A stretch of 64,000 nucleotides of DNA. Source: Neolentinus lepideus HHB14362 ss-1. Its lineage: Eukaryota > Basidiomycota > Agaricomycetes > Gloeophyllales > Gloeophyllaceae. A program made the translations under genes and the position numbers. Of the stretch, positions 41,475 through 63,452 are shown piece after piece (positions within the stretch are counted from its first letter, which is position 1; every line of letters begins with the position of its first letter). The notes beneath the pieces were generated by a model. That model searched no databases. It had not been told where the DNA came from and was given only the letters and a program-made list of their open reading frames with translations. The stretch covers positions 578,795-642,794 of the forward strand of contig KV425555.1 of assembly GCA_001632425.1 (NCBI GenBank), given 5' to 3'.

Positions 41475-42476
41475 TCAGCGAGCCATGGACCTGCGAGACA
41501 AGACTCGGAGAGCTTCGTCGTCTACTGGATCGCGATGACGAGCAATGCTCTGCAAATATTCCAGAGGAACAAGTTGGATCCGAGATGGATCCGGCGAAAA
41601 ACTGCACTTCGGACCAACAGCGTCTTTCGTCACTGCTGGAGATACTGGGGAGCCCACGCAAGTGGCATCTGTGTCAGAATCGGATGGTCGAGGCGACGGT
41701 GATGCAGAGAAAGCAAAGAAGCGTCCCTGAGCTGATTGTATTGGCGTATCGTAGCCCATGGAGAGATACTGGTTGGTTTTCGCCGCAACATCGCGTGACC
41801 TGCTGGCCCGGGCGCAGATATAATATGACTCGGGAACTACGAGATTTTTGATTGAGGGGATGTCGTCTACCGTTATTAATTGGTCGACAGTTTCTTGAGT
41901 GTAGTAGGCATCTGAAATAGCGCAGGTTGTCAACGGGGCATTCAACAAAATAATACTAATCTCACTCAGGTGCCATTTTCTCAAACCCGTTGGAGTATTG
42001 ACGTACACGGAATATGTTTGCTTGATCATAGTCTGCCGCCTGTTAAATTGTTCAGGTTATTGCCGGTGCAGTATCATATTGACATATCCCCGAAACACAC
42101 TTAAGGGCTTTACTAGTCCCCACCGCCAGAGATTTTGAGGGGCTGGGCTTTTCGTAGTAGAACAAGAAGTCCTATAAGGAATAAGTCTTAGCACAGGACG
42201 TGTACGCTGTAGCACAAAGCGACACACGTCTCGAGCACGAGATGGACCCCAGCTCCTGCCGTCCGTGAACCGTTCAATGCCAGGTTCAGAACCCTCCGGG
42301 AGGCCATGGCAGCGTTCCTCCCATACGTATGCGCACCCAGAGCAGAGCGCCATGCGCGCGTCGCTATCCAGGCGCCGAACCACCATGGGCAGGATATTCA
42401 GAGCAACGGCATGAAATAAAACGTTGGCGTCGTGGGTCGACCTGATACGTATGCCAGTACAAGTGGGTGATTGCAT
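41475..42476 (-). CDS. WOPR-domain (Gti1/Pac2 family) regulator, copy 1
   Basis: WOPR proteins (Wor1, Ryp1, Gti1, Pac2) are fungus-specific DNA-binding morphogenesis regulators. The start MQSPTCTGIRIRSTHDANVL is followed by PMVVRRLDSDARMALCSGCA, YVWEER, GIERFTDGRSWGPSRARD, and after an intron FLFYYEK: the WOPRa half. After a second intron, IKQTYSVYVNTPTGLRKWHL, and after a third AYYTQETVDQLITVDDIPSI, KNLVVPE: the WOPRb half. The C-terminal tail has a Ser/Pro region, then LVPLEYLQSIARHRDPVDDE and ALRVL. No signal or membrane helix. No lesion found. ATG 42474-42476 is chosen by alignment with copies 2 and 3; an upstream in-frame ATG at 42590 lacks similarity. Confidence 0.85.
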
Positions 42477-45105
42477 AGTGGCCAAGGTCAGTATGTGGCA
42501 CAGTATCTCATGGCTGGGGGTCTTTATATATCGCTGAATGCAATTGCATCTCGGAGCACGCAGATGGACACACTTCTTGAAGAGCGCCACAACTACCGGT
42601 TTGGCAAAGGAGTGAGAACGATGATGAACTTCCTAATCTAGGTATGCAAGATCGAGCCCAGTGGCCGGTAACTCCGGGCGTGGGACGGTGAGCCTGTTCT
42701 TTAAAAAGGGTGAATCGCTGAAGCTTATCTTCCCATGTATTCATAACGAGACATGGCCGGCCTGGCCACCGGTAGGATTTATGAATCTCGAAATCACACC
42801 CGACTGACCGACGGTGTACATAAGTATTTGTAGCTTTGAATGAGTAGATCCTTGATTCATTAACCTATCCAGGCCCGGATGCAGAAATATGCCGTATTCA
42901 AACTCTCACAGGGCGTGTTGTCCCCCTCACTGACTGACGTTTCCCACTTTCAAGATATTCCATGCTCCTCATGTTCGGTATTTCTGATTGTCTATACCTG
43001 CGCCTGGCTTAAAAGTATCACAAGTTCATCTCCTGTGAATCTGGCAGGCCTCCATCAATGAAATGACCATTATCTCATCGTGTCTCTAACAAGATGGACA
43101 GGCTGTTTTAGCATCTTGGACGCGGATGCCACTGGCTAGAGAAAATATGATAAGCCGGTATCTTCATCCGGATTTCCTTCGGTGTCTTCGTGTGTCTCTT
43201 CTTTGTATTTGATGATTCTGTGACTAACGTATTAGGCTGTTCATGATTGCACATTGTATGGCCCGAGCCCTTTAATTAGGAGGAAGACTATTACGGATTC
43301 GGAGACCCGTCGGGGAACGCGGATGAGATCCATTCCTTACGAGTCCAGGATTTTGTGAGAATGATAAATGGTCCGCATTATCTGAGGGGCTTCCCACGAA
43401 GCGCTCACTCATACACTCAACGACAATCACCTTGCGATGTCTCAGCGGCACTGGTGGCGAGGAGAGGAAAACAAATATTCCGAATTGGCGTTACAAATAT
43501 ATGCAGGCATGGAGTTCACTTCATTTGGATGTTGACTCGTGATTCTGTGAAGAGCCTGCTCTACTGGTCGCGTCTATTCTCACGAGTTTTCTGGATCTAC
43601 ACCCGATTTACCCGAGCAAAGCACAATGCCGCAAATTGAGCTCCCATTTCGGTAACATATGGATGGTAGAAGGGCGACTGTGACAGCGGTTTCTTCTGTG
43701 TCTCGCGACTTCACCGCCGAGAGGCCTATAACCCCCGAGAAAGTGGACAAGGCCTCTTTCGTGGTAAAGTTAAGTACGATAATTATACTCCCTTGATAGG
43801 AGTGATGCTTACAACATCGTCAAGCATACGTGATTGACCGGTGCCACATTATTCTGACGCGTCAATCACCGTCGCAACAAGCGCGCTGCCTGTTCTCCAA
43901 ATTTCTCAGAATGCCGTGTGTTCTTGCAGCCACACCGGACCGCCGGCATCTCTGATTATACTATCCATTCGTCTGTCTTGGGCAGAGCATCGCAGCAAAG
44001 GCTGTCCTCTCCCTGTTGCAATCTAACTCTTCCATCATAGAACAAGCATGGCTTTCACAGGCTTTGGCAATGGACGAGCTGTTCTGTTTTGGCTAACTTT
44101 CTCCTTCCTTGGTCTTACCTGTCACCTCATGTTTGTTCCGTTACCTTTCTCTGTGCCTCTCTACACATATGGTGTCTGCTTAATTCCTGCGACGTTGACC
44201 CATTGCATTTTCTGGGCCCAGTCCTTCACGGGCCCACTAGGACCTATTTTTTCGCATTGGTCAGGGACTTGGCGAACAGCCCCATACAACGTCGTCGCTG
44301 TATCGAAGTAACGTTATACTAGGCTCAACTCTCGTAGCTGGATTTCCCATTCCCATCGGTGACCACCAGTATGTCCCACGTATGCAACGTAACTTACGTT
44401 CCTCCGGTATGATGGATTGTGCTTCGCTTTCGTGTACTGCTCGAGCTAGAGCCGTCCATTCACGACGACTTCCCTTCCGAGGATATGTGGGCATCTTGAC
44501 ACTATCAGGTCAGTCAAGCATGGCCGGAAATGCCGTCGGTCATCACCATCGAGGAAGATCCCCAATTACTCCTTGTATCCATGTTCCCATATCGGTGGGC
44601 GTTGCAGTACGATCAAATCATCATGCCGCTCTAGGCTCTCAAGAAGAGTATATAAATATTTACTTTCATCGCTTTCTTCAAGCGAACGTTATTGGGTGTG
44701 GCGGCTCGCGTGGATGTTTTACTGAGTGCTGACGGAGGGACGTGGAAAAGTCCCAAGCTTTCCACGATCCCATCCCAGTGCGAACGACGGCGAACACGAA
44801 GTCAGCAAATTGTAGAAGCGTCCCTACTTCCGGATGACATGGTGAAGATATGCACATCGAAGATCGTTGGCGCACCAATTACCTGGGATGTGACTCACGG
44901 AGCGCAAGAGTAGATATCTTCTAAAACCTCAAGATGCTCACCAAAGGTCGGCGGAACAAGTGGAGTCAATTACGGGTTACCCACCATGTAATGGTCATTT
45001 CCGATAGAGACAAGCTTTATGTCCCCTGTAGTCAGTCTTTGATCAGCGCATGATGATCAACCCTATACAACATGTACCTGTCAAACAGGAAGCGTAGTGA
45101 CGACG
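42477..45105. other. Gene-poor stretch
   Basis: 2.6 kb without a recognised gene. A plus-strand frame 44048-44311 is hydrophobic (AVLFWLTFSFLGLTCHLMFV) and overlaps a second frame, but neither extends into a known family. A segment near 44718-44747 resembles one at 62312-62341 (shared core GAGTGCTGACGGA), possibly repeat debris. Confidence 0.3.
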
Positions 45106-45955
45106 TCAAAGGCCTTTGGCGTAGCCGCCTTTCTCGTAGAAGGCTTCAACTCTTGTGACAATGTGCTCCAGACCGGTAAGCCACTTATTCAGCTCTTCGT
45201 TCAGTTTGTCCTCGGGCATCGACGGCCCGCCGGCGGGGTCCGCTGCCAGCTTCTTGTAGAAGTCGACACGATACGGACATGCCTTCATCGCAACCTGTAG
45301 TCCGTTCCGATGTGCATGAGATAAGACGCGATCAGATATACGGTCGGTGGACTTACAGAGAATACGCCCTTCACCACAAAGTTGTGGTACTTCTTAAGCG
45401 TGACCTCGTATCCCTTCGTGAAAGCAACAGAAATTTCTTCGCTCTTGTTATTCTGCACGTTCTGGAGACCTTTGCAGGTGAAAGAGAGCCCGCGAAGTAG
45501 CCACATCAGACCTTCCGTGGCGGTACGCTTCTTCTCGCCTTTCTCGCCCTCGACTAGTTGCTCAAGTGTCGTAGATTGTGCAGGCGCTGAGTTATACCTT
45601 CCACGGACTTTCTGATGTTTATCAGGTCGTTTAGAAGGAGTAGAAGAGGTGAAATGCGAGCAGGGACCTTACTTCAATGTTGCCCCGCAGGTCAGACTGA
45701 ACGACGGAGAAAGCGGCGGACCCAAGGAGATCTACATGAAAGGAAGTTATTTTTATATTTCTCCTTCATAGAATCGTTCCTCATACCAAACAAACGGACC
45801 AAACCCTCGGACGCCTCAAGGGAAGCCAGAGTGTCGACGCCAGCGTCAGTTATAGGTACATCTGCGAACGACTACAGACATTCAGACCTTCAGACTGATG
45901 TTCTAACGATGCATATATCCAAACCCACTTTGACAGATTCAAGGAAAGGAGCCAT
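45106..45955 (-). CDS. Glycolipid transfer protein (GLTP fold)
   Basis: GLTP proteins move glycosphingolipids between membranes in the cytosol. The first exon is tiny: MAPFLESVK (45929-45955). Splicing then gives SFADVPITDAGVDTLASLEA, SEGLVRLF, DLLGSAAFSVVQSDLRGNIE and KVRGRYNSAPAQSTTLEQLV. Next are LMWLLRGLSFTCKGLQNV, GYEVTLKKYHNFVVKGVFS, and AMKACPYRVDFYKKLAAD before the end YEKGGYAKGL. The sugar-contacting residues of the family are all present: Asp, Asn and Lys in QSDLRGNIEK, Trp in MWLLRG and His in KKYHNF. Four or more short introns. It shares a 212-bp divergent promoter with the methionine sulfoxide reductase gene. Confidence 0.92.
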
Positions 45956-46167
45956 TCTGCGTCTCGCCCCCGCAGTACACGTTGAAGAGGATACTCAGAC
46001 TGATGACAACTGTATCCAGGTTGTTGCTAATTATAACTGTCAGGATGTCAATATGTGCAAATGTCACTTGTGGCGTCTATCGATGCCTTGGACCTTTCGC
46101 GAAGTCTTGTAAACACAATCGAGCAATTCCTGTAACGGGTCACCTTTGTTCCACATTGGCCTAGATT
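45956..46167. promoter_or_regulatory. Shared divergent promoter of GLTP and fRMsr genes
   Basis: The 212 bp between the two start codons must contain both promoters. I see no clear TATA box and no repeat; CAAATGTCACTTGTGG near 46060 is the only E-box-like cluster. Confidence 0.45.
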
Positions 46168-46982
46168 ATGCCACACGCAGACTCAGCTTTCGTCCCTTCC
46201 GATATTCAAACCAAAACCGAGTTCTGGAATTATGTATATGGCCAGTTACAGGGTTTGTTCGAGGGGCAGCGGTTTTGGGTGAGATAACAATCGTTTCTCA
46301 TCGGACGTAACATGAATAACTAGACAAGAGTACCATAGATTTCAAATCTGGCTAATGCATCCGCTCTAATATTCAATGCGCTCCTGGTGTATCCGGCGTA
46401 TTTTGGTTCTGGAAATAGAGCTGTCAACTGGTGTGGTACGTCCGTGTCATCCTTAGTCGGGTGCTGTTTATGCTCTTGACTTAACTATCTTATCCGCACC
46501 GACGGTATTGGATGCCCCGCCCATTCCAAGAGTACCGCAGCACTCTGATCTTATCACTTCGGTTCATAGGATTTTACATCGACGCTTCGTTGTTCCCCAC
46601 ACCGCGGCTATTAGGAGCGCAAAGTCAAGCCGATCATGTCGATCATTCCAGCAACAAGCTACTGCTGGGCCCGTTCTGTGGTAAACCCGCTTGCCAGTTC
46701 ATTAATACCGCCCCAGGGAAGGCTAGGGGAGTGTGCGCGGATGCTTATCTTCGCCGGGAGACTATTGTGGTCCCCGACGTGGAGCAGTACCCTGGTCATA
46801 TTGCATGCGATGGGGAAACCAAAAGTGAAATCGTGTGCCCATTGCTGCTGGAGTGGGGCGAGGAGCAGATCGCCGTGGGAGTGCTGGATCTGGATTGTTT
46901 GGCGCGCGAAGGCTTTACTGAAGAGGACAAGGTGGGTTTAACGAAGATAGCAGAATTGGTGGTTATAGCATCCGATTGGTAG
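46168..46982 (+). CDS. Free methionine-R-sulfoxide reductase (GAF domain)
   Basis: fRMsr reduces free Met-(R)-sulfoxide using a GAF fold and three cysteines. The start MPHADSAFVPSDIQTKTEFW is followed by YGQLQGLFEGQRFW, then after an intron SNLANASALIFNALLVYPAY and AVNWCG|FYID. The active-site region reads GPFCGKPACQFINTAPGKAR, GVCADAY, TIVVPDVEQYPGHIACDGET and KSEIVCPLL. Cysteines in PACQ, GVC and HIACD correspond to the catalytic and resolving set of the yeast enzyme. It ends EEDKVGLTKIAELVVIASDW. It converges with cysteinyl-tRNA synthetase, the stops about 160 bp apart. Confidence 0.92.
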
Positions 46983-47142
46983 TTGACACTAAATACAGTC
47001 TTGCGTATGTACTTTACCCTCATGGCAAACAGGGTCTGGCCCATTCGAGTTGTCCATTCATTCTTACGATCATCCCTACCGAGACGTCTCTCGTAATTTC
47101 CGCCATCGTCTGATATAACTTGGGTTCGTAAAGTAAGTTACA

Positions 47143-50100
47143 TCATGCAGACTCGTCCCTCTTCCATGCTAGATACTTTTCGTGCAAATCTTTCTGCATG
47201 GCCCACGCATGAAGATTTTTCTTGTTTTGATTCTTACTCAGCTCTTTCCCTTCGCCATCAGTTAGCGGCAGTCCCTGGCCGTTCCAACTCCGATAAGCCC
47301 CCTCCTGCACGTTGGGAGGTTTAAATATCTCCTCTGGTGGGACCCTGCCCTTCTCCAATTTTTGTATCCGCTTTTGACGTTCCGATTCCACTTGAGCGAC
47401 CTTCTTCGCCGCTCTCGCTTCCGCTTGCTTTCGCTTTTCCTCCCGAGCCTGCATCAATTCCTCAGGCGACACAATCTTCACAAGCGCTTTCCCGTCTAAT
47501 TTTAAATGATCAGAACGTGCAGCCGCAACCCAGTCAGCAGTTTCGTAACAAGCCTGAGGACATAACACTCACCCTCTTGATCGTCGAGAGCGACACCCAG
47601 GGGTACTAAGTCGACATCTCGTAGCTTGTCGCATAAGGCGAGGATGTCTTTGAATGCACTGTCGCCTTTGGCTATTGCCAGCTTTCGCACGCCGTCACGG
47701 AAGGATGATAGTGTCCGCAAGTAAGGCATAAGGATTTCTTCTCGCTGTTACAAGGTTTCGTGAGTCCAGGAAATGCACACAGCTGCCACACAAGTGAGAT
47801 GACGCAGACTCTCTTAACTCACATTGATGGCGGTGGTCTCCTTGCCTAGATCCTGCCCCCATCCAATCTCCGATAATTCGCCCTCTCCGAGACCGAATAT
47901 CCGCAGCATTCTGCCGACCCACTTGGCGACGTATTCGACAACCTTGATGTTCAAGTCCTTTCCAGGTGAATTGATATATGTGTTGGTTCTGGAAACAAGG
48001 GTCCGGAGAGCTTCAAGCGCTCCGGGGGTATTGAATGAATCGCAAAGAGCTGTCCTAAACGCTGTCTGGCTTGCATGTAGGCTAAAACAAAGGTCGGTTG
48101 AGATGCGATAAATCAAATTGTGACAGTGAGCGCACTGTTGGATCAATCCCTGCTCAGCTTCACCGTATCGATGTTGTCCGTCAGCCTTGGCACAGTCGGT
48201 GTCCATAAGCAAAGCCTTGACGACCGAGAAGAAATTCTGAAATACGGCGATTAATAAATATTCCTTGTCAAAATCGGACGTCTCTCACATTGAAACCAGT
48301 TTCAATACTCTTCACTTCGCCGGTCATCAATGATTCTGAAAAATCCATTCTAGCATTCCATTGCTGCGTCAGGAAAGCCAACCGCAATTGCCTAGCGGTA
48401 TATTTTCGCAAAATTTCCTACTATGTCGTCAGAAGATACCAAGGAATTATGCGAGCCCTCACATCGATAGTAATGAAATTCTTGAGCGACTTGCTCATCT
48501 TCAGACCTTCGATGTGAAGATGTCCGGTGTGCAGAAAATAGTTAACCCATGGGCCGTGGTTGTGATATGCCTGCCAAGGGCGTCGTTAATATGATCAGCG
48601 ACGCTCTAATACTCTGGAGAACGAGTGCACTTTACCTCAGATTGAGCCATTTCATTATCATGATGAGGGAATGCCAGGTCGATGCCACCTGAGTGGATAT
48701 CTATATTCTCGCCCAGAACAGCGGTGGCCATTACGGAACATTCGATATGCCATCCTGGCCGACCCGGCCCCCAAGGCGATGGCCACGCAGGTTCGCCGGG
48801 CTTCGACGCCTTCCATAACGCAAAATCGGAGGGAGAGCGCCGCCCCAAACTATCCGTAAGTGCACCTTGTAATCGCAAGCGTTACTTACAGAGCAATGGC
48901 AGGCAAATCCTGTATCACATTACCTTCACCCTCCTCAATTAATTTTTGGTTGCCTTTGCTCCAAGGTTCCAATTTAGCGTAGAAGTGGCCGTCAGTCCCG
49001 TCGAAAGTTCGAGTGTCAAAGTACACGCTGCCGTCAACTTCATATGCGTATCCATTCTCTATGATACGTTGCACGTAAGAGACAATCTCGGGTACATACT
49101 CCGTGACCCGCGTTATTGTGTCAGGTTCCCGAACGCGCAAACGAGACATATCCTCAAAGAACCGGTCTTCCCAGTACGATGATAAGGAACGGAAGATTGA
49201 ATGATCAGTGACGTTGGTCTTGAACTACGGCAATTCTCGTCAACAGAGACAATTTGACAGAATTACGCGAAGCAACAAACTTGTTTATCCAGCCATTCAG
49301 ACAGAACGTCGCTAGAAGCCTCGACTAAAGTCTGCGCGAACTGTGCATCGGTCTGGCCATCTGCAAGCTGCCTGGAAGCTGTCGATAACGCGGTGAAACT
49401 TCGATCCTAGAAAGGGGTCTACAAGGAATACACATTCATGAGAATCGAGACGCACAGCAACAGTTAGATGCATGGAGAATTTTTCATCCCGCTTCAAGCA
49501 TTCCGACCTCCACTGACTGTCATTCGCATATTCACGGATACGATCAAAGAGCTCGTCAGATGAGGCCCCATCTTGAGCAAATCCTTCTGGCAGACCCTTG
49601 CTGAGCTTGGACTGGAGGTAGGCGGCCCAGGCCGATCGCACTTCCTCGATCAATGTTGGATTCAAGGCTGTGACTTTAGACAGATAGCTATTGTAAAGAT
49701 GATTCTGCCTTGCTCGTATGATAATCTAGGGGAACTGTCAATTGCTTTCATGCATTGCAAGATGTGTCAAACCTTATCCTCGATATCTGTGATATTCATC
49801 ACGAAGTGGACGTCGTAACCGAAGTAGTCTGTCATTATCCTTCGAAGTACGTCTTGAGTAACATAGTTTCTACAAATGACCGGTACCTCAGCCTCACATA
49901 CCCATCTATTAAATATATGTCACTCACCGTGCATGGCCCATATGAGACGCATCATATACCGTCGGACCGCAGTTGTACCACTTTACATGTCGTCCATTCT
50001 TCGGAGTGAACTGGGTCTGGAGAACAGGTTTTGCACATGAAGAAGGAGGAGGAGGACCAATCTGACCTTGGATCGGGTTAGAGAGTTGTAGACTTTGAGA

Positions 50101-50249
50101 ACAGGTTCGTCCGCCTGGGGAATCGGAGGCGCCCAGCTTGGTTGCACAGCACTCATAAATAGGAATCGCCCACTAGTAGATGATAGGAAGTATTGTGAAT
50201 GACGAGTAGACTGATGGTAAGCCAAGGAACGAGTGAAGGAGGCAAGCAT
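47143..50249 (-). CDS. CARS1: Cysteinyl-tRNA synthetase, probable dual cytosolic/mitochondrial
   Basis: A class I synthetase charging tRNA-Cys. [18 protein letters not shown] (about 49930) holds the first zinc cysteine and the HIGH-type motif; [10 protein letters not shown] (about 48740) holds further zinc ligands; [18 protein letters not shown] (about 48490) is the KMSKS loop. The anticodon-binding region and a lysine-rich eukaryotic extension ([20 protein letters not shown]) lead to the stop at 47143. Two in-frame starts stand out. ATG 50249 begins a 31-residue Arg/Ser/His-rich, acid-free stretch ([15 protein letters not shown]...), like a mitochondrial presequence. ATG 50156 ([14 protein letters not shown]) would give the cytosolic form. 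A still more upstream ATG at 50291 is less likely. Many short introns. Confidence 0.92.
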
Positions 50250-52645
50250 GCGCTGCTTAATCGTGCCGGTGGCTGCAACGACTCGAGTCACCGATGCGTG
50301 ACCTTGTCACATCTTTGTTGAGTCAAGAGTCACTGGTCACGTCACTAGTCAAGTACCGCACCTTGTCTTGAGTCTTCATTCCACTAGTGTCCGCAGTGTC
50401 GGTGCGAAGTCCCGGTACAGTTCACGGCATCTTGAACTCGGTGATTCTGTTGATGCGGTCTGCTCTGCCAAAGACTTTCTGAGCGCCCGCTTCGCACGAG
50501 TTGGCTTGAACGGGTTTCAGGGTCTTCTGGCATGCCTGGATTGCATTCTCTGCATAGCTCAGATCATCTGCTGCCTCCTGATGCTGTCTTTACGTCTGTC
50601 CCCGAAAATAAGGTAAAACGTGCACCGTCTCAGCCTGCGATCGCTCCATGTCATATATTCTTTCCTGCTCCTGCAGTGGCGCGTGCCTGTGATGGCGACC
50701 GCACAGAAAGTTCCAAGCTACTGACCAAACTTTATCCTGCAGGTCGACGCTTTGGGCAGTACAGGGCGGTTTTCCCTCGTTGCTCGGAGCTTCGATCGTC
50801 AGGATAGCTTTTGTCATGGACAATTTTGTAAGTATTCAGCGAACTTATGTGCAGTACGCACAAGCTGCCTTTCAATTAGAGTGCTCCCTGGTTACTGAGG
50901 CTATCAGGCTTCAAGCTGTCGAACTCTGATATTGTGGCGCCCCATACTACAAACGATTATCAAGACAGCATCAGATCATAATATTCGTACGGTCGAGGGC
51001 TCCGACAAAAATCAAGGCAATACTATACCCGGAGTTCTCTACCACGATCCACTTCTGGCTCAAAGACCAATATCGAAGTTCAGAAGTTCCACCACGTATG
51101 TCTTGTTTGCCAATTTGCATTCAGTGAATCTCGGCCATAATTGTTGCCTTTTGTACCCTCGTGTTCAGTGCGCACGGATGCAGTAGACCAAGGAGTGCGG
51201 TCCAGGCAGACATCGGTGTAGACCGCCTTGTCACGCTGCTCATTATGGCTGTACTCATACGGACTCCTAGCTTACGATGAGCGGCTAACTGCACGTCCCT
51301 CCCGAAAGTGAGCACACCAAACCCATTCCATTCTCGCGTCATCTGCTTTGGGACGGCTGAAACCATTTCATGATTTGGTGTCAACGGCTTGACCCACAAC
51401 GTCCAGATGTCACGATGTATCGAACAGGCTGCGCGAGATGAAAACATTAGACAAGTCTTCGATATGACATGTGGTGTACGGAGTATCAAGCGCCTCTTCT
51501 CCATCGAAGGTCATTCATTTTTGACACCCTGGCACAGAAGTCTCCAGTACACGGGCTGAGCACATTCGCATTTCTACCAGAAAATATCTAACAGAGAATT
51601 TCAGTTTCATACGAGTGCTATTTTGAACTCCGGTCTCCGCGAATTGAAGCCGACCAAGGAAGTGTGGCGTTTGCGTGTGAATACATCGAGCATCTATCTG
51701 CACCTCACTCCCACCGGCGGTGCGTCCAGACGCGGCATTGATCCAGATAAGCACAGTCAGAAGATCTGACAGGCCCCGGCCTGCCCGTACTTCCGATCAC
51801 CTGGATGGCATTCAAACGCGTATCTGGCACGATGCGTGTTCAATAGACTTAGCCTTTATCCTATGCCGCTCCCGCCGCCTTTTACTCACGAGCCCTCAGC
51901 GACTGCATGAATCGTCGGTCGGGTCCCCTTTCAACATTCTTCACTCTATCCAAGTGGGCGCACTCGACCCATTCGTCCTGCGCGTTCCACGTTCCCCTCC
52001 TAATTGCTTGCATGCTCTGCTATTAGTATAGACTGCTTCGGACCTTTTACGGCATCACGGTGGCGGGACATATAGTTTCTCTATAATAGACCCCTCCATT
52101 CCCTTCTCCGCGGCCTGTACAAGCGCCTATTTCCCACAGCTTAAGCTCACACATTCTTCATCAGATAGGCAGCTAGATGCAACATTCATCGGGACTTCGT
52201 TATCCCCTAGCGTAGTCAGGAATCGAGCTTAATGAAGCTAATACTGGTATCGTGGGGTGCCTCGAGGTAAATCAACAAAACACCGTACCCATAGGGACCC
52301 GATTGCGGTCCTCACCTAATGCTAAGCCTCAGCGCCAAACTCACATCGATTCCACCCTTGTTTTCCTAACTATCATGCCGTGAAGTCAATTTAGAGGCTT
52401 CACTGGACCTGTCAAACAAGGTCAGATCTCAGTATCTTAAGTTTTCGGACTGTTGTGTGTTGCCTGACTTGTTGCTGCGTTAACATTCAGTTCGTGTTCG
52501 AGATCGCGCCACTCGGATCATCATGTTCTGTTCATCTCACGCAGATATTTTAGCATATCATCACAGCCCTCGTCTCTTAAAGCGTGCATCGCCCGGTTGC
52601 CGAGCCGTTCCCTTCATATCCTTTGTATTGCTAGTCATACCCTCC
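50250..52645. other. Gene-poor stretch
   Basis: The left 100 bp is the CysRS promoter, rich in GTCAC/GAGTCA words. The rest holds short frames on both strands (for example minus 51121-51504, 127 codons) without domains I recognise. The right part is the leader and promoter of WOPR copy 2. Confidence 0.35.
50319..50325. promoter_or_regulatory. Gcn4-type bZIP site TGAGTCA upstream of CysRS
   Basis: TGAGTCA matches the Gcn4/AP-1 consensus exactly, 70 bp upstream of the ATG at 50249. CGAGTCA at 50284-50290 and AGAGTCAC at 50326-50333 are near-matches. Gcn4-family control of synthetase genes is known in fungi; binding here is inferred. Confidence 0.45.
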
Positions 52646-53743
52646 ATGCAACGACCTACTTGCACCAACATCCGTCTCAGAGCTACCGCAGACGCGCACG
52701 TCATATTCCATGCCGTCAACTTGGGCGTTTTACCTATGGTCCTCCGTCGACTAGACAGCGAGGAGAGACGTTCAATTGTCCCCGGCTCCGTCTTCGTCTG
52801 GGAGGAGCGCAGCCCAAACACTGAAGCTACTGGGGTTGGTACTTCATATACCCTTCGTGTCACTCATCTTTGACCCTTACTATGACATTTTAGCTCGGTA
52901 TCGAAAGATGGACAGATGGTATTAAATGGGGCCCGTCACGAGTACGGGACGTGAGTGGCGGTATTCATTCGATCGTGTTCCAGGGCTCATTCGGATCCCT
53001 AGGATTTCCTTCTTTACAACGAGAAAGACGTCGACTACGACCTGGACATGTGCTCTGAGGCAGACCGGTAGTGAGTTTTGATCCCTCCTAGCAAGGATGT
53101 TCATTGAACCGTGCACAGTCTTAGATCACAATCCCCATCTGGCCGGACATGGGGTAATCCAGCGGACCATCTCGTCAAACAAACTTACTCCGTCTTTGTT
53201 GAGACACCCAGAGGTCGGCGAAAATGGCACATGAGTAAGTCTGTACCACCGGTTATGACAGCTGCGTGTTTGACATACCTTTGCGCAGTCGCCTACTTCA
53301 CGCAGGAGTCGCTAGACTATCTGCGGACGATCCAGGATATCCCCGAACTCGCGCGTCTTCAAGTTCCAGAGGGTTTGTACAAGAAGGCTCGGCTGGCCAA
53401 AGGTCGTGGTCGAGAATCGGAATACTCCTATGATCGACAAGTTACAAACGTCGAAGATTATGGAAGTCATAGTGGCTACCCCTATACCCCTTACGCATCG
53501 CATCTAGCCCCGTCCTCGCCTTACATGACCGGGACACCGGAGCGACAGAAGGTAAAAACGCCTGATTGGAGAGACGTGCCGCGTTCCATTGATCGAGACT
53601 CTTCTCAGTCGACTGATTCGTCGCAGTCCGTCGCAAGAGGCCCCGACACCTATCTCGCACCTCTATCCTATCTGGAGAGCATACGTCAGTCTCGTCGACA
53701 CCCGCTCGATGAGAAGGCACTCCGGTCATTTCGCTCTCGCTAG
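52646..53743 (+). CDS. WOPR-domain (Gti1/Pac2 family) regulator, copy 2
   Basis: WOPRa begins MQRPTCTNIRLRATADAHVI, then PMVLRRLDSEERRSIVPGSV and FVWEER. After an intron comes LGIERWTDG..KWGPSRVRD, and after another FLLYNEKDVDYD. WOPRb is VKQTYSVFVETPRGRRKWHM, then after an intron with GTAAGT YFTQESLDYLRTIQDIPELA and RLQVPEG. A variable Tyr/Ser/Pro region follows (SGYPYTPYASHLAPSS). The tail is YLAPLSYLESIRQSRRHPLD, EKALRSF. Intron positions correspond to copies 1 and 3. Copy 2 is closer to copy 1 than to copy 3 in WOPRa. It has no lesion that I can see. In-frame ATG 52523 is upstream but adds no family sequence. Confidence 0.87.
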
Positions 53744-56700
53744 ATGCGATATTTTACCGGACCTCGAGTTTGTCCACAAAGGGGCAGCGCCGACACGAGG
53801 TTTCAAGGTGTCTTCTGGGATCTTGTAGTTCTGTTGGACTCCAGTCCATGTCATCGATTCATAATTTTCCAAGTACATTTCCACTGTATTCTTATCATCA
53901 ATTGTAGCACTCGCACTGTAGTGATTACGGACTATCTCAGTGTTCCCTAGTACGCATGTTTAGTCAATAAAGTATCATGTAGTCTTAGGTTTTACGCTTC
54001 AGGCACGATCTTCCTACCAAGATACCGCTCAGTAAGCGAGAAGTGGAAGCTTGTCAAAGCGATAGGATCCGAGGAGGCGCATTCCCATCGCGGTCCCTGT
54101 ACAGTGAGAACGTCTGGGCGCAAGAAGCAGACTTGGCCTGAGGAGCCCCGCAGCTCTCACAAGTCAATTTAGCCTATTAGAGTCAGTCGACAATCTGCTT
54201 ATTTAAAGGTAAAACTAAGTGATGCGCATGGGGTTGACTGTATATACATGTGCGTGCGCTCGCTTCCAGTGTCTTCGTCACGATTATAATGATAATCAAT
54301 CCTGTCGAGCCGGCGGTGCCAACAATATATAAATTCTCAAAGATTGATCACTATATATGTTCTATTCGCGGGCTGCATATTTCTGGACCGCGCTCGTCGG
54401 ATGCATAGCCGAGTTTCCGAGAGAGATGAACGTTGAATTGGCCATGAGCCATGTTCGTTGCAGGACGGTTACATCGTTAAGGTTCGTAATATCAGAATGT
54501 AGTGTTATTTGATCAGTCCCTGCAACTGGACCCTGTAACTTCTTTTCGTACCCTCGATACCCTGTCAGTCGCTGCGAACTCACCAATAGAGTCCATTTCG
54601 CCACTCATTTTTAGACGTTTTTAGCTCCTGAGTTAAGTAACCGTCAGGCTTATACACGGACACGACCCACCTGTGCAGTCCGGATCGGAGGCAGTTCTCT
54701 GTCCCTCTTTCAAGAGGGACCGACCTAACAGTAGCACATAGGACGACAGAGAGCACCGGACACTGAATACAGAAGCTCCCTCAGGCGATCTCCTCAGGGC
54801 AGGTGACCTTAGAGATACGCGCGGAGCCTCTCCATTAAACAACGAAGTTGATAAGTCTAGTACGAAACTCGGTGAGATCCGCCAAAATACCAGAATAGGA
54901 CATCAGGAAGTTAGATGTACTGCATGCTTACGCGTTCAATTGGAAGCTGACTAGCCTCGCAGCCTAATCAGAATTATGGCTGGAGAAATGTGCAGCCGCG
55001 AGCCCGACGGAATTAGAAAACCTGTAAGATTATCTCCACCATCAGCGCCCGAGAGGCACGGAGATCTAGAAGCTGTGCTATGAAGGGAGTTAGGGCCCGA
55101 CGTCTAGCGTGGAACTTAGGTCAGCAATTGTCTGCTAATGTCAGGACCATACAGCAGTCCAAACTTTGTGACAAGCTCCGCAGCCGTGCCTCCATGTTCG
55201 ACACTCGTGCCGAAACTTTCCTCCCTGCATGACAAGGAGAACGTGGAAATGGCGAGAGGTTTAAAGAAGAGCGGAAGGCTTGTGACATATATGGACGGAA
55301 GTTCATTTGCATGTATACGAGGAAATGTCCGACACTCCCGACGCGTACTTACCTCAAGTGAGCACCCATGGCGGATTTAGCCAAGGCGCCCCAAGGTATA
55401 CTAGTATCTGGCCAGACCAACGACGAATTTAGATCACGAATTCGGCCGCCGCTGTATAATGTGACGTCCTGTCGTATGGTCTGGATTTGTGGGGCGACTT
55501 CGCTGCGCTGACTTGAGACTAAACGTGAGAAGCGCCGTGGTGCCCAGAGTTTGACAGCCGGACTAATCTGCACTTTGACTAACAAGAGTGCACCAAGCGA
55601 ATGGCTTCACCAGTGACCCTGAGTTGGAGTTGGAACGTACGCGTGACCAGCATCGAGGCTCTTCACGCATTTGTACCAGGCCGTAGAAGTATAAGAAATA
55701 ACAGGAGATGACAGCGAACGGTGATAACGCTTGCCTACAAAGGAGTATAGGGTGCTGGAGTGTCCATTAACCCTGTCACTTGAATTTGAATCACGTGTAT
55801 CTGATTCAAGAAAGTGAATACGCACCTACCAATTTAGACTTCAAGTTCATCACGATTCCCGTCGTACTAGAAAACGCCACCCACAACAACTCATCCGTAT
55901 GTGGTCCATGCATATCCAAAGAAAAGCCGGTAGCGTTACATTTGATTCGAGGACGACGAACGTAGACAAATATCCTTGGGTCGTGTCTTCATGTAGCTCG
56001 AGTCAGTGTGCGTACACAGAAGCCTTGCATTGCTGATGCAAGCTTCGGCAGATCATTGCATTTCACAAGATTAGTTAGCAAACTTCGTGATGATCGACTT
56101 CCACCGTATCAGTCCATGTGAGAGCCTTAGACCGGTAGCACGGCCAGGAAACCGTAGGCACTGCAGCCATATCGCACGTAAAGCAAATCGTTCCAGACCA
56201 AAAGAGAGCGGTATAGATTTTACCAAACTGTAACCATTGCGGTATGACTTGAGGCGGAATCTGAGGACTTCGAGAGAAGCAGTAAGTTACCGCAACCGGA
56301 CAGTTCAACTGCTTTTAGTGTTGTCAGAGCCCTCAAGCGAGACTCCTGAATTTGAGAGTAGATAAGAGGAACAAGGTTGACCCGGAAATGACAAAGGCTG
56401 CAGCTGCAGAAGCACCTGTCATAAGCCGCATCAATAACCGTGCACCGAACTGCTGCTGTAGCGCAAGGAAGTACACTGTGACATCCCACCTTCAGATTTC
56501 TGAATCATGAGATATGACGACTTACATATGTTAAGCTGCGAGTGTGATGAAAACAGGCTATTAGATCTAGTCCGTGACATAAGACAGATTCATGACCGCC
56601 CGTAAGTTGTTACCAACGAACCCTGGCTTAGCGTCAGGAGTTGGATATTGCAGAGCAGCAAATGCTTGTTCAAGAACAAGTGCATAAGTCGCAGACCTAG

Positions 56701-57947
56701 ACGGCCGGGTGTATGCCCAGTGTTTTGATGTCTTGAACAAATCGTGAGCCAGATCTGAGCCTTTTCCTGTACTCAGAAGTCAGTTCGACAGCATCAGGAA
56801 AATGTCATCCGGGCTTAGCGGTCTTTCCCGGTCTTTTTCGGTCTTAGGACGACTTATTTAAGGAAAATTAAGCCAAGTCCCGGCGCCTAAAGCACCGAAA
56901 GGTGGCGAAAGATCGCCGAAAGCCCGCCTAAGACGCCTTTAAGTCCCCTAAGGAAATTTAAGCCAAGTCCCTTCGGCCTGACATTTTCCTGATGAGTTCG
57001 AGAGCTCCACTCCGAGTCAAACGGTGGGAGTTCGGTGACATAACAGGCTACCGGCCATGTGGGCCGGCGTTCGGCCTTCTTTAGCCGAGCTACGACCGGT
57101 GGCAAGAATTTCAAGGATTTCTCAGTGTGCCTTGTGGCAGAAGCCGGCCCGTTTCGTATACCGTAACACATCGATGAACATCGATACGACCACTTGTGTG
57201 CACTTTCTGAAACATTCCGTCCCACGAAAGTTATCTTTCAATACCGCATGGCCTATTCATCATGAGTCGCAAGCTCGAGTAACTTAGGACTCTCCGACGA
57301 CACCGAGACGCGAGGTCTCATGATTCACACCGACGCCCGCAGACAGCACAACAGGAACCTTCTTTGGGAATGATATTCTGCCGAACCCTGCGCTACGGCG
57401 ACGCTAGGAGGAAGAACTCAGAAACACGTTGCGCCCAGCCCCAGACGGTGGGGTCTTTCGCCTGGTCGCACATTTCCGGGACGGCAAACTAACAAAATGT
57501 TCTCTTGGTTTTTGCCGGTGCGTATCCGAAGGACCTTGGATCACTTTTCGCCGCGTAAGTAGGTTGTTTCTTTGGCTCAGATTCGGACGGAAGCAAATCA
57601 GTGAGCAGCTGATCACTCAAGTCAGCAATCGGTCGTATGTGATATGTGATCAAACACTCTAGGTCACAAACTGATAGCGTTGCCATATAAATCGAGATTG
57701 GCTCTGTTACCGCTTACCCGGTTCTGTAGCTCGATTTAGATTCTACGCGCCAGTCTAATTAAATGACGCCCCCGCTTCTTGGCTATTACATTCTGGCCAC
57801 TGCCCTCAAGAGCGCAACCAGTCATCCAATGCATCATTACGTCTCCGTTGTCTTTCGGTTCCTGGCTTGAACTGCTCTTATCCCTTTCCTTCGACACGCC
57901 ACACTTGCCGCAGAACTCTGAAGCACTGTGTTGCTGGGCACTATACC
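53744..57947. other. Gene-poor stretch with a MITE and unassigned frames
   Basis: About 4.2 kb without a recognised gene. Minus-strand frames (54362-54604, 55349-55585, 55607-55825, 56075-56308) might be exons of an unidentified gene, but I see no motif and no convincing chain of splice sites. A small inverted-repeat element lies at 56792-56994. The frame at 56887-57225 (minus) is partly the element itself and is not a gene. Confidence 0.3.
56792..56994. mobile_element. 203-bp inverted-repeat element (MITE, Mutator-like)
   Basis: CATCAGGAAAATGTCA at 56792-56807 is repeated in perfect inverse orientation at 56979-56994. The element is flanked by AGTTCGACAG (56782-56791) and AGTTCGAGAG (56995-57004), a 10-bp direct repeat with one mismatch. 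A 9-11-bp duplication fits Mutator-like elements. Inside are two direct copies of TTAAGCCAAGTCCC, near 56867-56880 and 56959-56972. No coding capacity. It sits about 950 bp upstream of WOPR copy 3. Confidence 0.65.
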
Positions 57948-59320
57948 ATGCAACAGCCAACTCTCCGGGAGTTTCGCCTGCGCAATGTTCAGGATGCTCT
58001 GAAAGTGTTCTATGCTTGCTACCTGGGCATCCTCCCGTTGATAACGAGACGTTTGGATAATGAAGAAAGGCAGGCGCTCCGTCCAGGAGACGCTTATGTA
58101 TGGGAGGGTCGAAACCCGCAGACAGATGTGAGCGGTCTAGGTATCGAGAGATGGACAGAGGGCAAGAAGTGGAGTCAATCGCGTGTGCGAGAGGTGTATA
58201 CAGTTTGACAAAAGTATAATGCTCTCTTTTTGACGTGTCACAAGGATCTGCTTTACTACTATGAAAAGTTTCCTGAGGGGTGCGTTTTATTTCCGGAACT
58301 GTGTCGAAATCTTCTGATGGTGTCGACTATGCCAGCAAGACACCTGATGCCTCCGTCCGTCTGATAAGACAGACTTACTCGGCCGTCGTCAATGATCCTA
58401 CGAGCGAAAAGCCTCGTAAGCTAGGTTTGAGTACGCACGTCGCTCATAGCTTTTCCTATACCCCTTATTGACATTATGTCTTTTACTCGTCCGTAGGCAC
58501 ATATTATACGGAGAATAGTCTTGAACATCTGCATACCGTGAACGATATCCCCAAGCTTAGGGACCTCGTTGTACCAGAAGGCCTGTTCGTGAGAGAGCGG
58601 AAAACTAGCCAGAAGTCCAGGCACGCGCTGCCTTCCTCTTCTGATCAAAATCATGTTACTACCGCCCCATCTCGAAGACACGGGGAGTGCCACAGACACG
58701 TGGCTCCTCGCACATACGCCCCTTACCCAGCTCCGGTGGTTTCTCCAATTCCATCCCGGTCATCTCAGGACTCTTACAACCCGGATGAGCCCTCCCATTT
58801 CAATACTCCCACCTACTGCTCCTCATATCCTGAGCAATATAGGGCTCATGGATATCATCAACACTACTGGACGCAGGGACACAACTTGCTACTGAGTCCC
58901 TATGGAACTACGAATAATATTCCACCACAGTATGGCTATCCTCAGACCTCCTACTACTCTTCGTATCACTCAAATGAGCCATGCAATTCGTCCCCGTCTT
59001 CGAGTGCTGCCTCCATCTACGGGGAAGAGCCTTCCCCAATTGAGCCGACTGTCAGTACTTCGATGCCCAGGCGGTCTATATCTGTGCCTGAACCTGACGA
59101 CGAACGACGATGGCCAGCAGTGTCGTCTTCCGCACCATACGCGGTTCCCCGAGCTGCTGCGCCACTCCAAGATGTGGTGGGCGACACAGCTAGGGAGAGA
59201 ATCGGTGGGCCCGTGTACCTTGCTCCTTTATCTGACCTCAGAAAGGATAGCCTCCACCGCCGAGACCCTGCGGATGACTGCGCCTTACGGCTCCTGGATC
59301 AGAAGCAGGACTATGTCTAG
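57948..59320 (+). CDS. WOPR-domain (Gti1/Pac2 family) regulator, copy 3
   Basis: WOPRa begins MQQPTLREFRLRNVQDALKV, then LPLITRRLDNEERQALRPGD, AYVWEGRNPQTD, LGIERWTEGKKWSQSRVRE; after an intron DLLYYYEKFPEG. WOPRb is RLIRQTYSAVVNDPTSEKPR and, after an intron, TYYTENSLEHLHTVNDIPKL, RDLVVPEGLF. A long Tyr/Ser/Pro/His-rich tail follows (about 200 residues, longer than in copies 1 and 2). It ends YLAPLSDLRKDSLHRRDPAD, DCALRLLDQ. It is the most diverged copy: the initial PTCT motif is PTLR, and AVxLxILPMV reads ACYLGILPLI. Whether DNA-contact residues are kept needs alignment to Wor1. No stop inside the spliced model. Confidence 0.83.
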
Positions 59321-62343: not shown

Positions 62344-62445
62344 CAGAATATCGCATCCGCTAACGGCGCGGCCAAGGGGCCAACGGCAAGAAAACGCGCG
62401 ACGTCAACCCTATAGAGTGAACGAGGACCCCGGGACCCTTATGTA
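62344..62445 (+). repeat. Diverged repeat, arm A of an inverted pair
   Basis: Contains CCAAGGGGCCAACG and, 12 bases later, GCGACGTCAACCCT, then a CCCCGGG cluster. The same blocks with the same 12-base spacing occur on the opposite strand at 63340-63452. Confidence 0.6.
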
Positions 62446-63339
62446 ATGCAGAGACCACCCCCTAATTAGGCAATATGTGGCTAGAGTGATTACAAGGCGC
62501 GAGGAAACAAGTCGAATTACAGGAAAACTGTGGTACGATGGTGCCCAGGAACCATTTATATACAAGATACACTTAACATACATGCTTTGATATGCATATG
62601 ATAAGGTTTGAGTCTGTACTAGATGCGAAAAGGCTTACGGGGAGCTGGCGGGCTTGATCAATAATCGACTTATCGTCTGCTGAATCTTGTGCAGTGGTCA
62701 TATTTCCTGGAGACTTGTCATAATTGCATTGATGCTTAAACATCACTCTACTGGCTTATACGGATGATGAGGCGCTCATTCACGGATGGTTATTTCTGAT
62801 TGGTTTGTGCGTCTGAGGTCCGAACATGCACAGTCTTATCCTCGCTCCATGTCTTAAGAATTTTATGGAATATAGTAATTTAATACTTGTCTGGTTCTTA
62901 TATAATGCTACAACTCCAAGGTCCAGAGCTGAAATGTACACTAATTCCCGCATCATACATACTTTGTATCTCAATATGTGTGCCACTTGTATCCGGGTTC
63001 ACAACACATTAGCACAGCAATAGCGAAGTATAAGAATTAGACTTCTTATTAGTGACACACATTGTTCTTTATCTTATGAGTAGGACGTACCAATATCTCG
63101 AGATACAGCAGGCGGATTGAGGCCACATGGCGCAAGTGTCCAAATACGGTAGCTAGTGGCGGAGGCAAGTAGGATCGTTGCACACACCATGCGATTTTGG
63201 CTTCTCATGTCAAAGATAATTGTATGCTAATGTATTGTACTATCATTTATTAGTATACTACACACTTTTGTGACGGTATGAAACACTGTGGAAGGTGCCA
63301 GCCAAGATTGAACACTAACAGTGCAAAAAAGTGAAAATA
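62446..63339. other. AT-rich spacer between inverted repeat arms
   Basis: About 0.9 kb between the two arms, AT-rich, with frames under 70 codons. No transposase seen. Confidence 0.35.
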
Positions 63340-63452
63340 TGGACCCCGGGGACCAGTCAGGGGGTTACCACCCGAGGGTTGACGTCGCCGGCAATACCCG
63401 CGTTGGCCCCTTGGGCGCGGCTACGGTAGCCCCGTAGCATATCCCGGCAAGC
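63340..63452 (-). repeat. Diverged repeat, arm B of an inverted pair
   Basis: The reverse complement carries CCAAGGGGCCAACG, 12 bases, GCGACGTCAACCCT and a CCCCGGGG cluster, as in arm A. The match fades beyond ATAT at the outer side. Confidence 0.6.

What the first reader, a model, noticed from the sequence alone, without database searches (positions are those of the whole stretch)
41475..59320. Local expansion of three WOPR (Gti1/Pac2) regulators
Three paralogues lie within 18 kb (41475-42476 minus, 52646-53743 plus, 57948-59320 plus). All have the two-part WOPR domain with introns at the same places (after the SRxRD/E motif and after the KWH or equivalent motif). WOPR genes are usually few per genome and dispersed, and act as master regulators of morphological switching. 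A cluster in inverted and direct orientation suggests repeated local duplication, possibly a lineage-specific developmental switch.
Basis: partly seen in the sequence, partly recalled or inferred. Interest (0 to 1): 0.78.

Follow-up and report, generated by a model that had tools for sequence, protein, structure and literature searches.

The report
Ancient linked WOPR regulator gene cluster
Three neighbouring regulator genes in a wood-rotting mushroom are not fresh copies of one another but members of old gene lines, two of which sit on the same stretch of chromosome in distantly related mushrooms.

Summary
The genome is Neolentinus lepideus HHB14362 (Gloeophyllales). W1 and W3 equal deposited proteins letter for letter; the deposited W2 lacks 14 residues. 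Eight WOPR genes were found in the genome, 5 of them in two clusters (three here, two on contig C3). Synonymous sites are saturated between all three window copies. W2 belongs to an orthogroup (III) spread over Agaricomycetes. W3 belongs to another (II), with the C3 pair. A clade of the three copies with their closest orthologues is rejected (p-AU 0.0004), as is W2 with the W3/C3/Jaapia clade (p-AU 0.001). W1 is old and poorly placed. New here: among the listed hits, groups II and III share a contig in 7 of 7 species holding both, against 1 of 15 for I and III and 0 of 5 for I and II. So the cluster looks like an old linked set kept over several mushroom orders, with extra copies in Gloeophyllales. 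The subfamily also has its own intron set and a conserved C-terminal motif with no Pfam match. Function is inferred: DNA-binding developmental regulators. No expression data were available.

The parts
41475..42476 (-). W1: WOPR gene, 276 aa; exons 42476-42228, 42171-42101, 42039-41966, 41911-41475
   Evidence: gene model; identical to NEOLEDRAFT_1175469; Pfam PF09729 4.2e-21; 91% identity over 62% of its length to the partial Gloeophyllum trabeum P0037
52646..53743 (+). W2: WOPR gene, orthogroup III, 294 aa; exons 52646-52834, 52894-52950, 53003-53070, 53119-53234, 53289-53743
   Evidence: Pfam 1.4e-27; over residues 1-180, 97% to Heliocybe P0004 and 79% to Jaapia P0137; fold of P0136 matches Wor1-DNA structures
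57948..59320 (+). W3: WOPR gene, orthogroup II (Gloeophyllales branch), 399 aa; exons 57948-58193, 58245-58279, 58336-58430, 58497-59320; RKLGL in place of RKWHL
   Evidence: identical to NEOLEDRAFT_704217; over residues 1-165, 87% to Heliocybe P0122; Pfam 2.2e-18; fold matches Wor1-DNA structures
41499..41573 (-). W1 C-terminal motif LVPLEYLQSIARHRDPVDDEALRVL
   Evidence: coordinates worked out by hand from the exons
53654..53731 (+). W2 C-terminal motif LAPLSYLESIRQSRRHPLDEKALRSF
   Evidence: two short helices, block-mean pLDDT 76-84, in the model of P0136; coordinates by hand
59219..59296 (+). W3 C-terminal motif LAPLSDLRKDSLHRRDPADDCALRLL
   Evidence: helix 383-395 in the model, block-mean pLDDT 80 and 64; coordinates by hand
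45106..45668 (-). glycolipid transfer protein (GLTP) gene between W1 and W2
   Evidence: Pfam PF08718 2.5e-25 on ORF 45285-45668, 0.0043 (below cut-off) on 45106-45393
46485..46982 (+). GAF-domain gene between W1 and W2
   Evidence: Pfam PF01590 1.6e-5, over cut-off
47143..50306 (-). cysteinyl-tRNA synthetase gene between W1 and W2 (outer limits approximate, end ORFs assigned by eye)
   Evidence: Pfam tRNA-synt_1e 5e-40 on 48606-48881 and DALR_2 2.6e-6 on 47814-48284; no Pfam hit on 47143-47568 and 49983-50306

Best explanation
The window holds an old, linked set of mushroom WOPR transcription-factor genes. SHOWN: W2 is the orthogroup III member and W3 belongs to orthogroup II together with the C3 pair and, less firmly, Jaapia P0017; W2 and W3 keep the predicted WOPR DNA-binding fold. 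SHOWN WITHIN LIMITS: II and III genes are on one contig in every listed species that has both. INFERRED: II arose by tandem duplication of a III-like gene before several orders of Agaricomycetes split (rooted on the canonical genes, III is the grade from which I and II branch), and the neighbours stayed linked; in Gloeophyllales group II multiplied again into W3, C3a and C3b, and W1 is a further old offshoot, most likely of II. INFERRED mechanism: each protein binds promoters through the N-terminal WOPR domain; a disordered linker then carries a C-terminal helical motif, common to the subfamily, that recruits a shared co-regulator; together they tune development, most likely fruiting-body programmes, with W3/C3 genes changed in the second WOPR half (KWH lost) and so probably in DNA affinity or partner.
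For: Three orthogroups (careful tree; without nine chiefly long-branch rows support is I 100/100, II 100/99, III 99/93). Contig sharing 7 of 7 II-III, 1 of 15 I-III, 0 of 5 I-II; Fisher p 4.7e-5 for 7/7 against 1/15; the smallest shared contig is 209,965 bases (Melanogaster). dS saturated for all three window pairs (pS 0.82-0.93). AU tests reject recent local triplication and W2 with the W3/C3/Jaapia clade (test F). Constraint: identity in the conserved part to other genera is 97% (W2, residues 1-180), 91% (W1, 62% of its length) and 87% (W3, residues 1-165). C-terminal motif pattern in 197 of 215 hits against 0.065% of shuffles. Only 4 Foldseek hits at E <= 0.001 for each model, all chains of 4m8b, 4qtj and 4qtk, E 4e-10 to 4e-8, TM to Wor1 chains 0.75-0.79. 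A Gti1/Pac2 gene ranked 4th among primordium-induced genes in Flammulina and the family is stated to be developmentally regulated in six other Agaricomycetes (passages of PMC7567395); one is among the most regulated genes in Laccaria ectomycorrhiza (passage of PMC8708209).
Against: Distances between II and III genes in other species are unknown; sharing is read from equal contig length, and 4 of the 7 contigs exceed 1 Mb. Only listed hits (215 proteins, clustered at 90%) were used, and species are not independent. W1's place is weak: W1+W2 with Bondarzewia and Jaapia (p-AU 0.25) and W1 with Bondarzewia and the W3/C3 clade (0.22) are not rejected, W1 with the W3/C3 clade without Bondarzewia only borderline (0.058). 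W2 with W3/C3 without Jaapia P0017 is only borderline rejected (0.047). In the full careful tree group II has 92/76 only. No enrichment of the published WOPR site in the window (7 against 11.1 expected), so no support for auto- or cross-regulation. No expression data for these genes.
Confidence: 0.72

Rival explanations
1. Recent lineage-specific local triplication in Neolentinus.
For: Three paralogues in 17.8 kb with the same introns; P of such clustering by chance 4.8e-5.
Against: AU rejection p 0.00038; dS saturated; each copy has an orthologue in another genus at 87-97% in the conserved part; the introns are shared by all six subfamily genes, wherever they lie.
Confidence: 0.04
2. Mixed origin: W1 is an old local duplicate of W2 (group III) made before the Gloeophyllales-Bondarzewia split, while W3 came from group II; linkage is partly secondary.
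For: W1+W2 clade with Bondarzewia and Jaapia not rejected (p-AU 0.25); W1-W2 has the highest identity among W1's own-genome pairs (56%).
Against: Free tree puts W1 in group II (92/76); W1 lies on a long branch.
Confidence: 0.25
3. The II-III contig sharing is an accident of long contigs and small sampling; the genes are merely on the same chromosome.
For: Contigs of 0.85-2.5 Mb in 5 of the 7 species.
Against: I-III, the built-in control with contigs up to 5.4 Mb, shares in 1 of 15; product of contig/30 Mb over the seven species 4.8e-11, with 30 Mb an assumed genome size and the species not independent; Melanogaster contig is 210 kb.
Confidence: 0.12
4. The W3/C3 type is losing function: its changed WOPR second half no longer binds DNA and it acts as a decoy for partners of the C-terminal motif.
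For: KWH absent in W3, C3a, C3b and their orthologues, but KWH or KFH kept in 53 of 53 group I and 121 of 121 group III rows; RWTDG..WSPSR is RWTEG..WSQSR in W3 (sequence).
Against: WOPR core of W3 predicted with block-mean pLDDT 87-98 except 80 and 63 at residues 51-70, and it matches Wor1; 87% identity to Heliocybe over residues 1-165 argues for constraint.
Confidence: 0.15

Closest known systems
Wor1 (Candida albicans) and YHR177W (yeast) WOPR domains, PDB 4qtj/4qtk and 4m8b
   Same: Same predicted fold; the only Foldseek hits at E <= 0.001 and the only profile hits at E <= 1 in the PDB.
   Different: 22-28% identity; a loop inserted before the RWTDG segment; a conserved C-terminal motif.
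Ros1 (Ustilago maydis), Rcv1 and Liv3 (Cryptococcus), basidiomycete WOPR proteins studied before
   Same: WOPR family in Basidiomycota; Ros1 binds the Wor1-type site (PMC4917244, sections 12 and 17).
   Different: Cryptococcus holds two, and that paper calls the family's C-terminal regions highly variable (passages of PMC6243373); here eight genes were found and six share a C-terminal motif. The two canonical-type genes of this genome are on C2 and C70, not in the window.
Gti1/Pac2 genes regulated in mushroom primordia and ectomycorrhiza (Flammulina, Laccaria)
   Same: Possibly the same subfamily (a guess).
   Different: Which orthogroup those genes belong to was not tested; their sequences were not held.

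Membership tests
WOPR / Gti1_Pac2 (PF09729) | Pfam score over curated cut-off | tested here: met
   3 of 3 window proteins, 67-97 bits against 23.6
WOPR / Gti1_Pac2 (PF09729) | two-lobed WOPR fold | tested here: met
   models of W2 (deposited P0136) and W3 match chains of 4m8b, 4qtj and 4qtk, 4 of 4 hits at E <= 0.001 each; W1 not modelled
WOPR / Gti1_Pac2 (PF09729) | RWTDG..WSPSR segment (motif and its role recalled) | tested here: met
   RFTDGRSWGPSR (W1), RWTDGIKWGPSR (W2), RWTEGKKWSQSR (W3): kept with substitutions
WOPR / Gti1_Pac2 (PF09729) | binding to the Wor1-type DNA site | not testable with these tools
   needs EMSA or a reporter; site not enriched in the window
WOPR / Gti1_Pac2 (PF09729) | control of a morphological or developmental switch | not testable with these tools
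   no expression or mutant data for this species were held
Recent local tandem array | copies are each other's closest relatives | tested here: not met
Recent local tandem array | low synonymous divergence | tested here: not met
   pS 0.82-0.93 for the three window pairs
Conserved linked pair (II + III) | same contig in distant species | tested here: met
   7 of 7 species with both among the listed hits
Conserved linked pair (II + III) | immediate neighbours in distant species | not testable with these tools
   only contig lengths of other fungi were seen, no DNA

The most novel reading that the evidence does not exclude
Groups II and III form a conserved regulatory unit of mushroom-forming fungi: two WOPR factors kept side by side since before several orders of Agaricomycetes diverged because they share regulatory DNA or cross-regulate, acting as a two-gene developmental switch. 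Both recruit the same co-regulator through the C-terminal motif, and Gloeophyllales built an extra layer from altered group II copies (W3, C3a, C3b).
Probability: 0.2. Interest if true: 0.72.

Novelty: new variant of a known kind. Interest (0 to 1): 0.47.

Why it matters
WOPR factors are known as switches in yeasts and pathogens, where they mostly come in pairs. A mushroom subfamily with its own gene structure and C-terminal motif, in three old orthogroups of which two stay linked, would give defined candidates for control of fruiting and a ready test: delete the II-III pair singly and together in a tractable mushroom. It also corrects a tempting misreading: clustered paralogues with the same introns need not be recent or lineage-specific.

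Tried and rejected
Rejected: recent triplication. Rejected: the C3 pair as a segmental copy of this cluster. ORFs of the 40 kb around the C3 pair, compared with the window plus 30 kb of flanks, hit the WOPR genes (and their reverse frames) and three other places only, at 23-43% identity: two pieces of an oxidoreductase-like gene (window 20.9-22.5 kb) and a C2H2 zinc finger (31.5 kb), families recognised by eye and common in fungi, some 10 kb or more from C3b on one side and from W1 on the other. Not supported: auto-regulation by WOPR sites (pattern TTARRSTT taken from a passage of PMC5140021; 7 found, 11.1 expected). No RNA family and no tRNA in the window. The C-terminal motif has no Pfam match in 18 of 18 pieces; its 9 PDB hits at E <= 1 are short partial matches, none passing as a stretch of its own. 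Literature: searches on Gti1, WOPR or 'Gti1 Pac2' with Agaricomycetes, basidiomycete, mushroom, Coprinopsis, fruiting body, tandem, expansion or Neolentinus, on Wor1 structure and on 'cAMP-independent regulatory protein' listed no paper that by title, abstract start or the passages I read describes linked WOPR paralogues in mushrooms. Only the held open library was searched and most listed papers were not opened; the study cited by PMC7567395 for developmental regulation in six species was not seen. Weak points: the motif pattern was written after seeing the six proteins; orthogroups were named from the tree on which some tests were then run. Of the 18 hits without the exact pattern, 13 show an evident variant by eye, 5 do not (P0037 and P0128 are partial records; P0134, P0210, P0212).
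Full report
WHAT IS THERE. The window lies at C5:578795-642794 of a 33.8 Mb genome in 168 contigs. The species is Neolentinus lepideus HHB14362 ss-1: W1 is identical to NEOLEDRAFT_1175469 on a contig of the same length, 775,899 bases (lineage Agaricomycetes, Gloeophyllales). W1 is 276 aa on the minus strand, W2 294 aa plus, W3 399 aa plus. W3 too is identical to its deposited protein; the deposited W2 model (280 aa) lacks 3 and 11 residues in two places, and the 294-aa form equals its Heliocybe orthologue in length. Pfam finds Gti1_Pac2 in all three, over cut-off, in the first half of the domain.

THE WHOLE GENOME. A family search and two protein searches of the own genome find eight WOPR genes: two canonical ones (C2, C70), three here, two on C3 in the same orientation, 4.2 kb start to start (C3a, C3b), and one on C9. 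The search scores only its best candidates, so eight is a lower bound. The six non-canonical genes share a start MQxPT, an intron after SRxRD/E (SRVVG in C3b) in phase 0, one after KWHL or its equivalent in phase 1, and, in 5 of 6, a linker intron in phase 2. Uniform placement of eight genes would put three within 17.8 kb with probability 4.8e-5.

AGE. Over 156-158 aligned codons the synonymous sites are saturated between W1-W2, W1-W3 and W2-W3 (pS 0.82-0.93); protein identity there is 47-56%. Each copy has a much closer orthologue in another genus: W2 97% in Heliocybe (residues 1-180), W3 87% in Heliocybe (residues 1-165), W1 91% in Gloeophyllum (62% of its length). The duplications are thus older than these genera.

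TREE. Three protein searches gave 561 (120 listed), 18 and 667 (120 listed) hits at E <= 1e-5, together 215 distinct listed proteins. A quick tree of all 215 plus eight rows from this genome shows three orthogroups: I with the C9 gene (53 rows), II with W1, W3, C3a and C3b (45), III with W2 (121); 4 rows stay outside. Rows include both my models and their deposited copies. A careful tree of 64 chosen rows keeps them: I 100/99, II 92/76, III 99/94 as splits against the other groups; rooted on the two canonical genes, III is a grade from which I and II branch. Leaving out nine rows, chiefly long-branch ones (the W1 trio among them), raises II to 100/99. W3 groups with C3a, C3b and their Heliocybe and metagenome orthologues at 100/97, and this clade with Jaapia P0017 at 84/90 (95/97). 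W2 pairs with Heliocybe (100/96) and then Jaapia P0137 (97/58).

TESTS. AU tests reject the window three with their closest orthologues as one clade (dlnL 127, p 0.00038) and W1+W3 with theirs (p 0.00014), and W2 with the W3/C3/Jaapia clade (p 0.00096). Against a tidy story: W2 with W3/C3 but without Jaapia P0017 gives p 0.047. W1 is not firmly placed: with W2 0.25, with the W3/C3 clade and Bondarzewia 0.22, with the W3/C3 clade without Bondarzewia 0.058. W1's nearest relative outside Gloeophyllales in the set is in Bondarzewia, at a long distance. So W1 may be an old offshoot of II or of III.

LINKAGE ACROSS SPECIES. The protein lists give the length of the contig that holds each protein. I tabulated 171 named proteins; 169 fall in groups I-III, under 135 species names. 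For each species I asked whether members of two groups share a contig length. II and III: 7 of 7 species (Neolentinus, Heliocybe, Jaapia, Lyophyllum atratum, Athelia psychrophila, Melanogaster broomeanus, Pisolithus thermaeus). I and III: 1 of 15 (Scleroderma citrinum, 3.3 Mb contig). I and II: 0 of 5. Fisher p for 7/7 against 1/15 is 4.7e-5. Melanogaster's shared contig is only 209,965 bases. None of this depends on W1. The seven species belong to Agaricales, Boletales, Atheliales, Jaapiales and Gloeophyllales (the last two; the others recalled). The limit is plain: same contig is not same neighbourhood, contig identity is inferred from equal length, and only listed hits were counted. No DNA of other named fungi was obtained.

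PROTEINS. Models of W2 (deposited form P0136, mean pLDDT 76) and W3 (pLDDT 68) have mostly well predicted WOPR cores and poorly predicted linkers. Against the PDB both find YHR177W and Wor1 chains and nothing else at E <= 0.001. The KWH of the second lobe is kept (pattern KWH or KFH) in 53 of 53 group I, 121 of 121 group III and 33 of 45 group II rows; it is RKLGL in W3, YRICL in C3a, FKICL in C3b and RKMHL in Jaapia P0017. A motif near the C-terminus, LxPLxxL then R-x-P-x-D and ALRxL, matches a pattern in 197 of 215 proteins, starting at a median of 31 residues from the end, against 0.065% of shuffles. Of the 18 others, 13 show an evident variant by eye; 5 do not, two of them partial records. 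In the W2 model it forms two short helices with block-mean pLDDT of 76-84. It has no Pfam match. A Cryptococcus study calls the family's C-terminal regions highly variable (passage of PMC6243373), so a motif conserved across mushroom orders is unexpected.

FUNCTION. Direct evidence for these genes is lacking. By family, WOPR proteins bind DNA and switch development (Ros1: PMC4917244, sections 12 and 17 read). In mushrooms a Gti1/Pac2 gene was the fourth most induced in Flammulina primordia, and the same paper says the family is developmentally regulated in six other species (passages of PMC7567395). One Gti1/Pac2 gene is among the most regulated in Laccaria ectomycorrhiza (passage of PMC8708209). 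Which orthogroups these are was not tested. That an Agaricomycete can hold many WOPR genes is in print: 23 in Cryptoporus (passage of PMC11856377). The Candida model, in which Wor1 works by relieving the co-repressor Tup1 at the WOR1 promoter (abstract of PMC5786334), suggests a partner for the C-terminal motif, but that is a guess. WOPR sites are not enriched in the window.

NEIGHBOURHOOD. Between W1 and W2 lie genes for a glycolipid transfer protein, a GAF-domain protein and cysteinyl-tRNA synthetase. Of the 4.2-kb W2-W3 spacer, the 3.9 kb searched matches elsewhere in the genome only through one 203-bp repeat.

VERDICT. Observation confirmed. The reading as a recent lineage-specific expansion is wrong for at least two of the three genes. 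What replaces it is an old linked WOPR set, conserved in linkage across several orders as far as contigs can show, in a mushroom subfamily with a distinctive C-terminal motif. Interest is moderate: known family, new arrangement, function untested.

Noticed in passing
window 56792-56994: A 203-bp repeat with perfect 16-bp terminal inverted repeats (CATCAGGAAAATGTCA), MITE-like, with 24 other near-full copies (190 bases or more) at 88-100% identity found in this genome, a lower bound.
   Followed up: partly
window 62372-63414: A repeat of about 1.04 kb downstream of W3, with six other near-full copies at 96-97% and two at 83% in the genome, the rest partial. On C58 (208966-209922) a copy of the 203-bp element sits inside a copy of this repeat, so the short element moved after it.
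   Followed up: partly
G000:C3:161928-167500 (L003, L005): A second WOPR pair, C3a (406 aa) and C3b (397 aa, identical to NEOLEDRAFT_1174679), same orientation, both of group II with the KWH segment lost.
   Followed up: yes
G000:C9:375786-377564 (L013 4786-6564): The deposited C9 WOPR model (P0002, 284 aa) leaves out one stretch of 161 residues of the last exon that is open in my model (445 aa); an annotation choice, or alternative splicing.
   Followed up: partly
P0010: A group II WOPR protein is filed under the willow Salix suchowensis and sits on a zero-length branch with the Pleurotus cornucopiae protein; probably fungal contamination of the plant assembly.
   Followed up: no
P0126, P0129, P0132 (Tephrocybe, Blastosporella): A second group II branch has RKWQL in place of RKWHL while its member P0133 (Termitomyces) keeps RKWHL, so this His was probably lost separately from the W3/C3 clade.
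   Followed up: no
P0147/P0203 (Cyathus striatus), P0139/P0204 (Crucibulum laeve): Two group III genes share a contig length in both species, 2 of the 7 species with two listed group III proteins; a possible further linked duplication.
   Followed up: no
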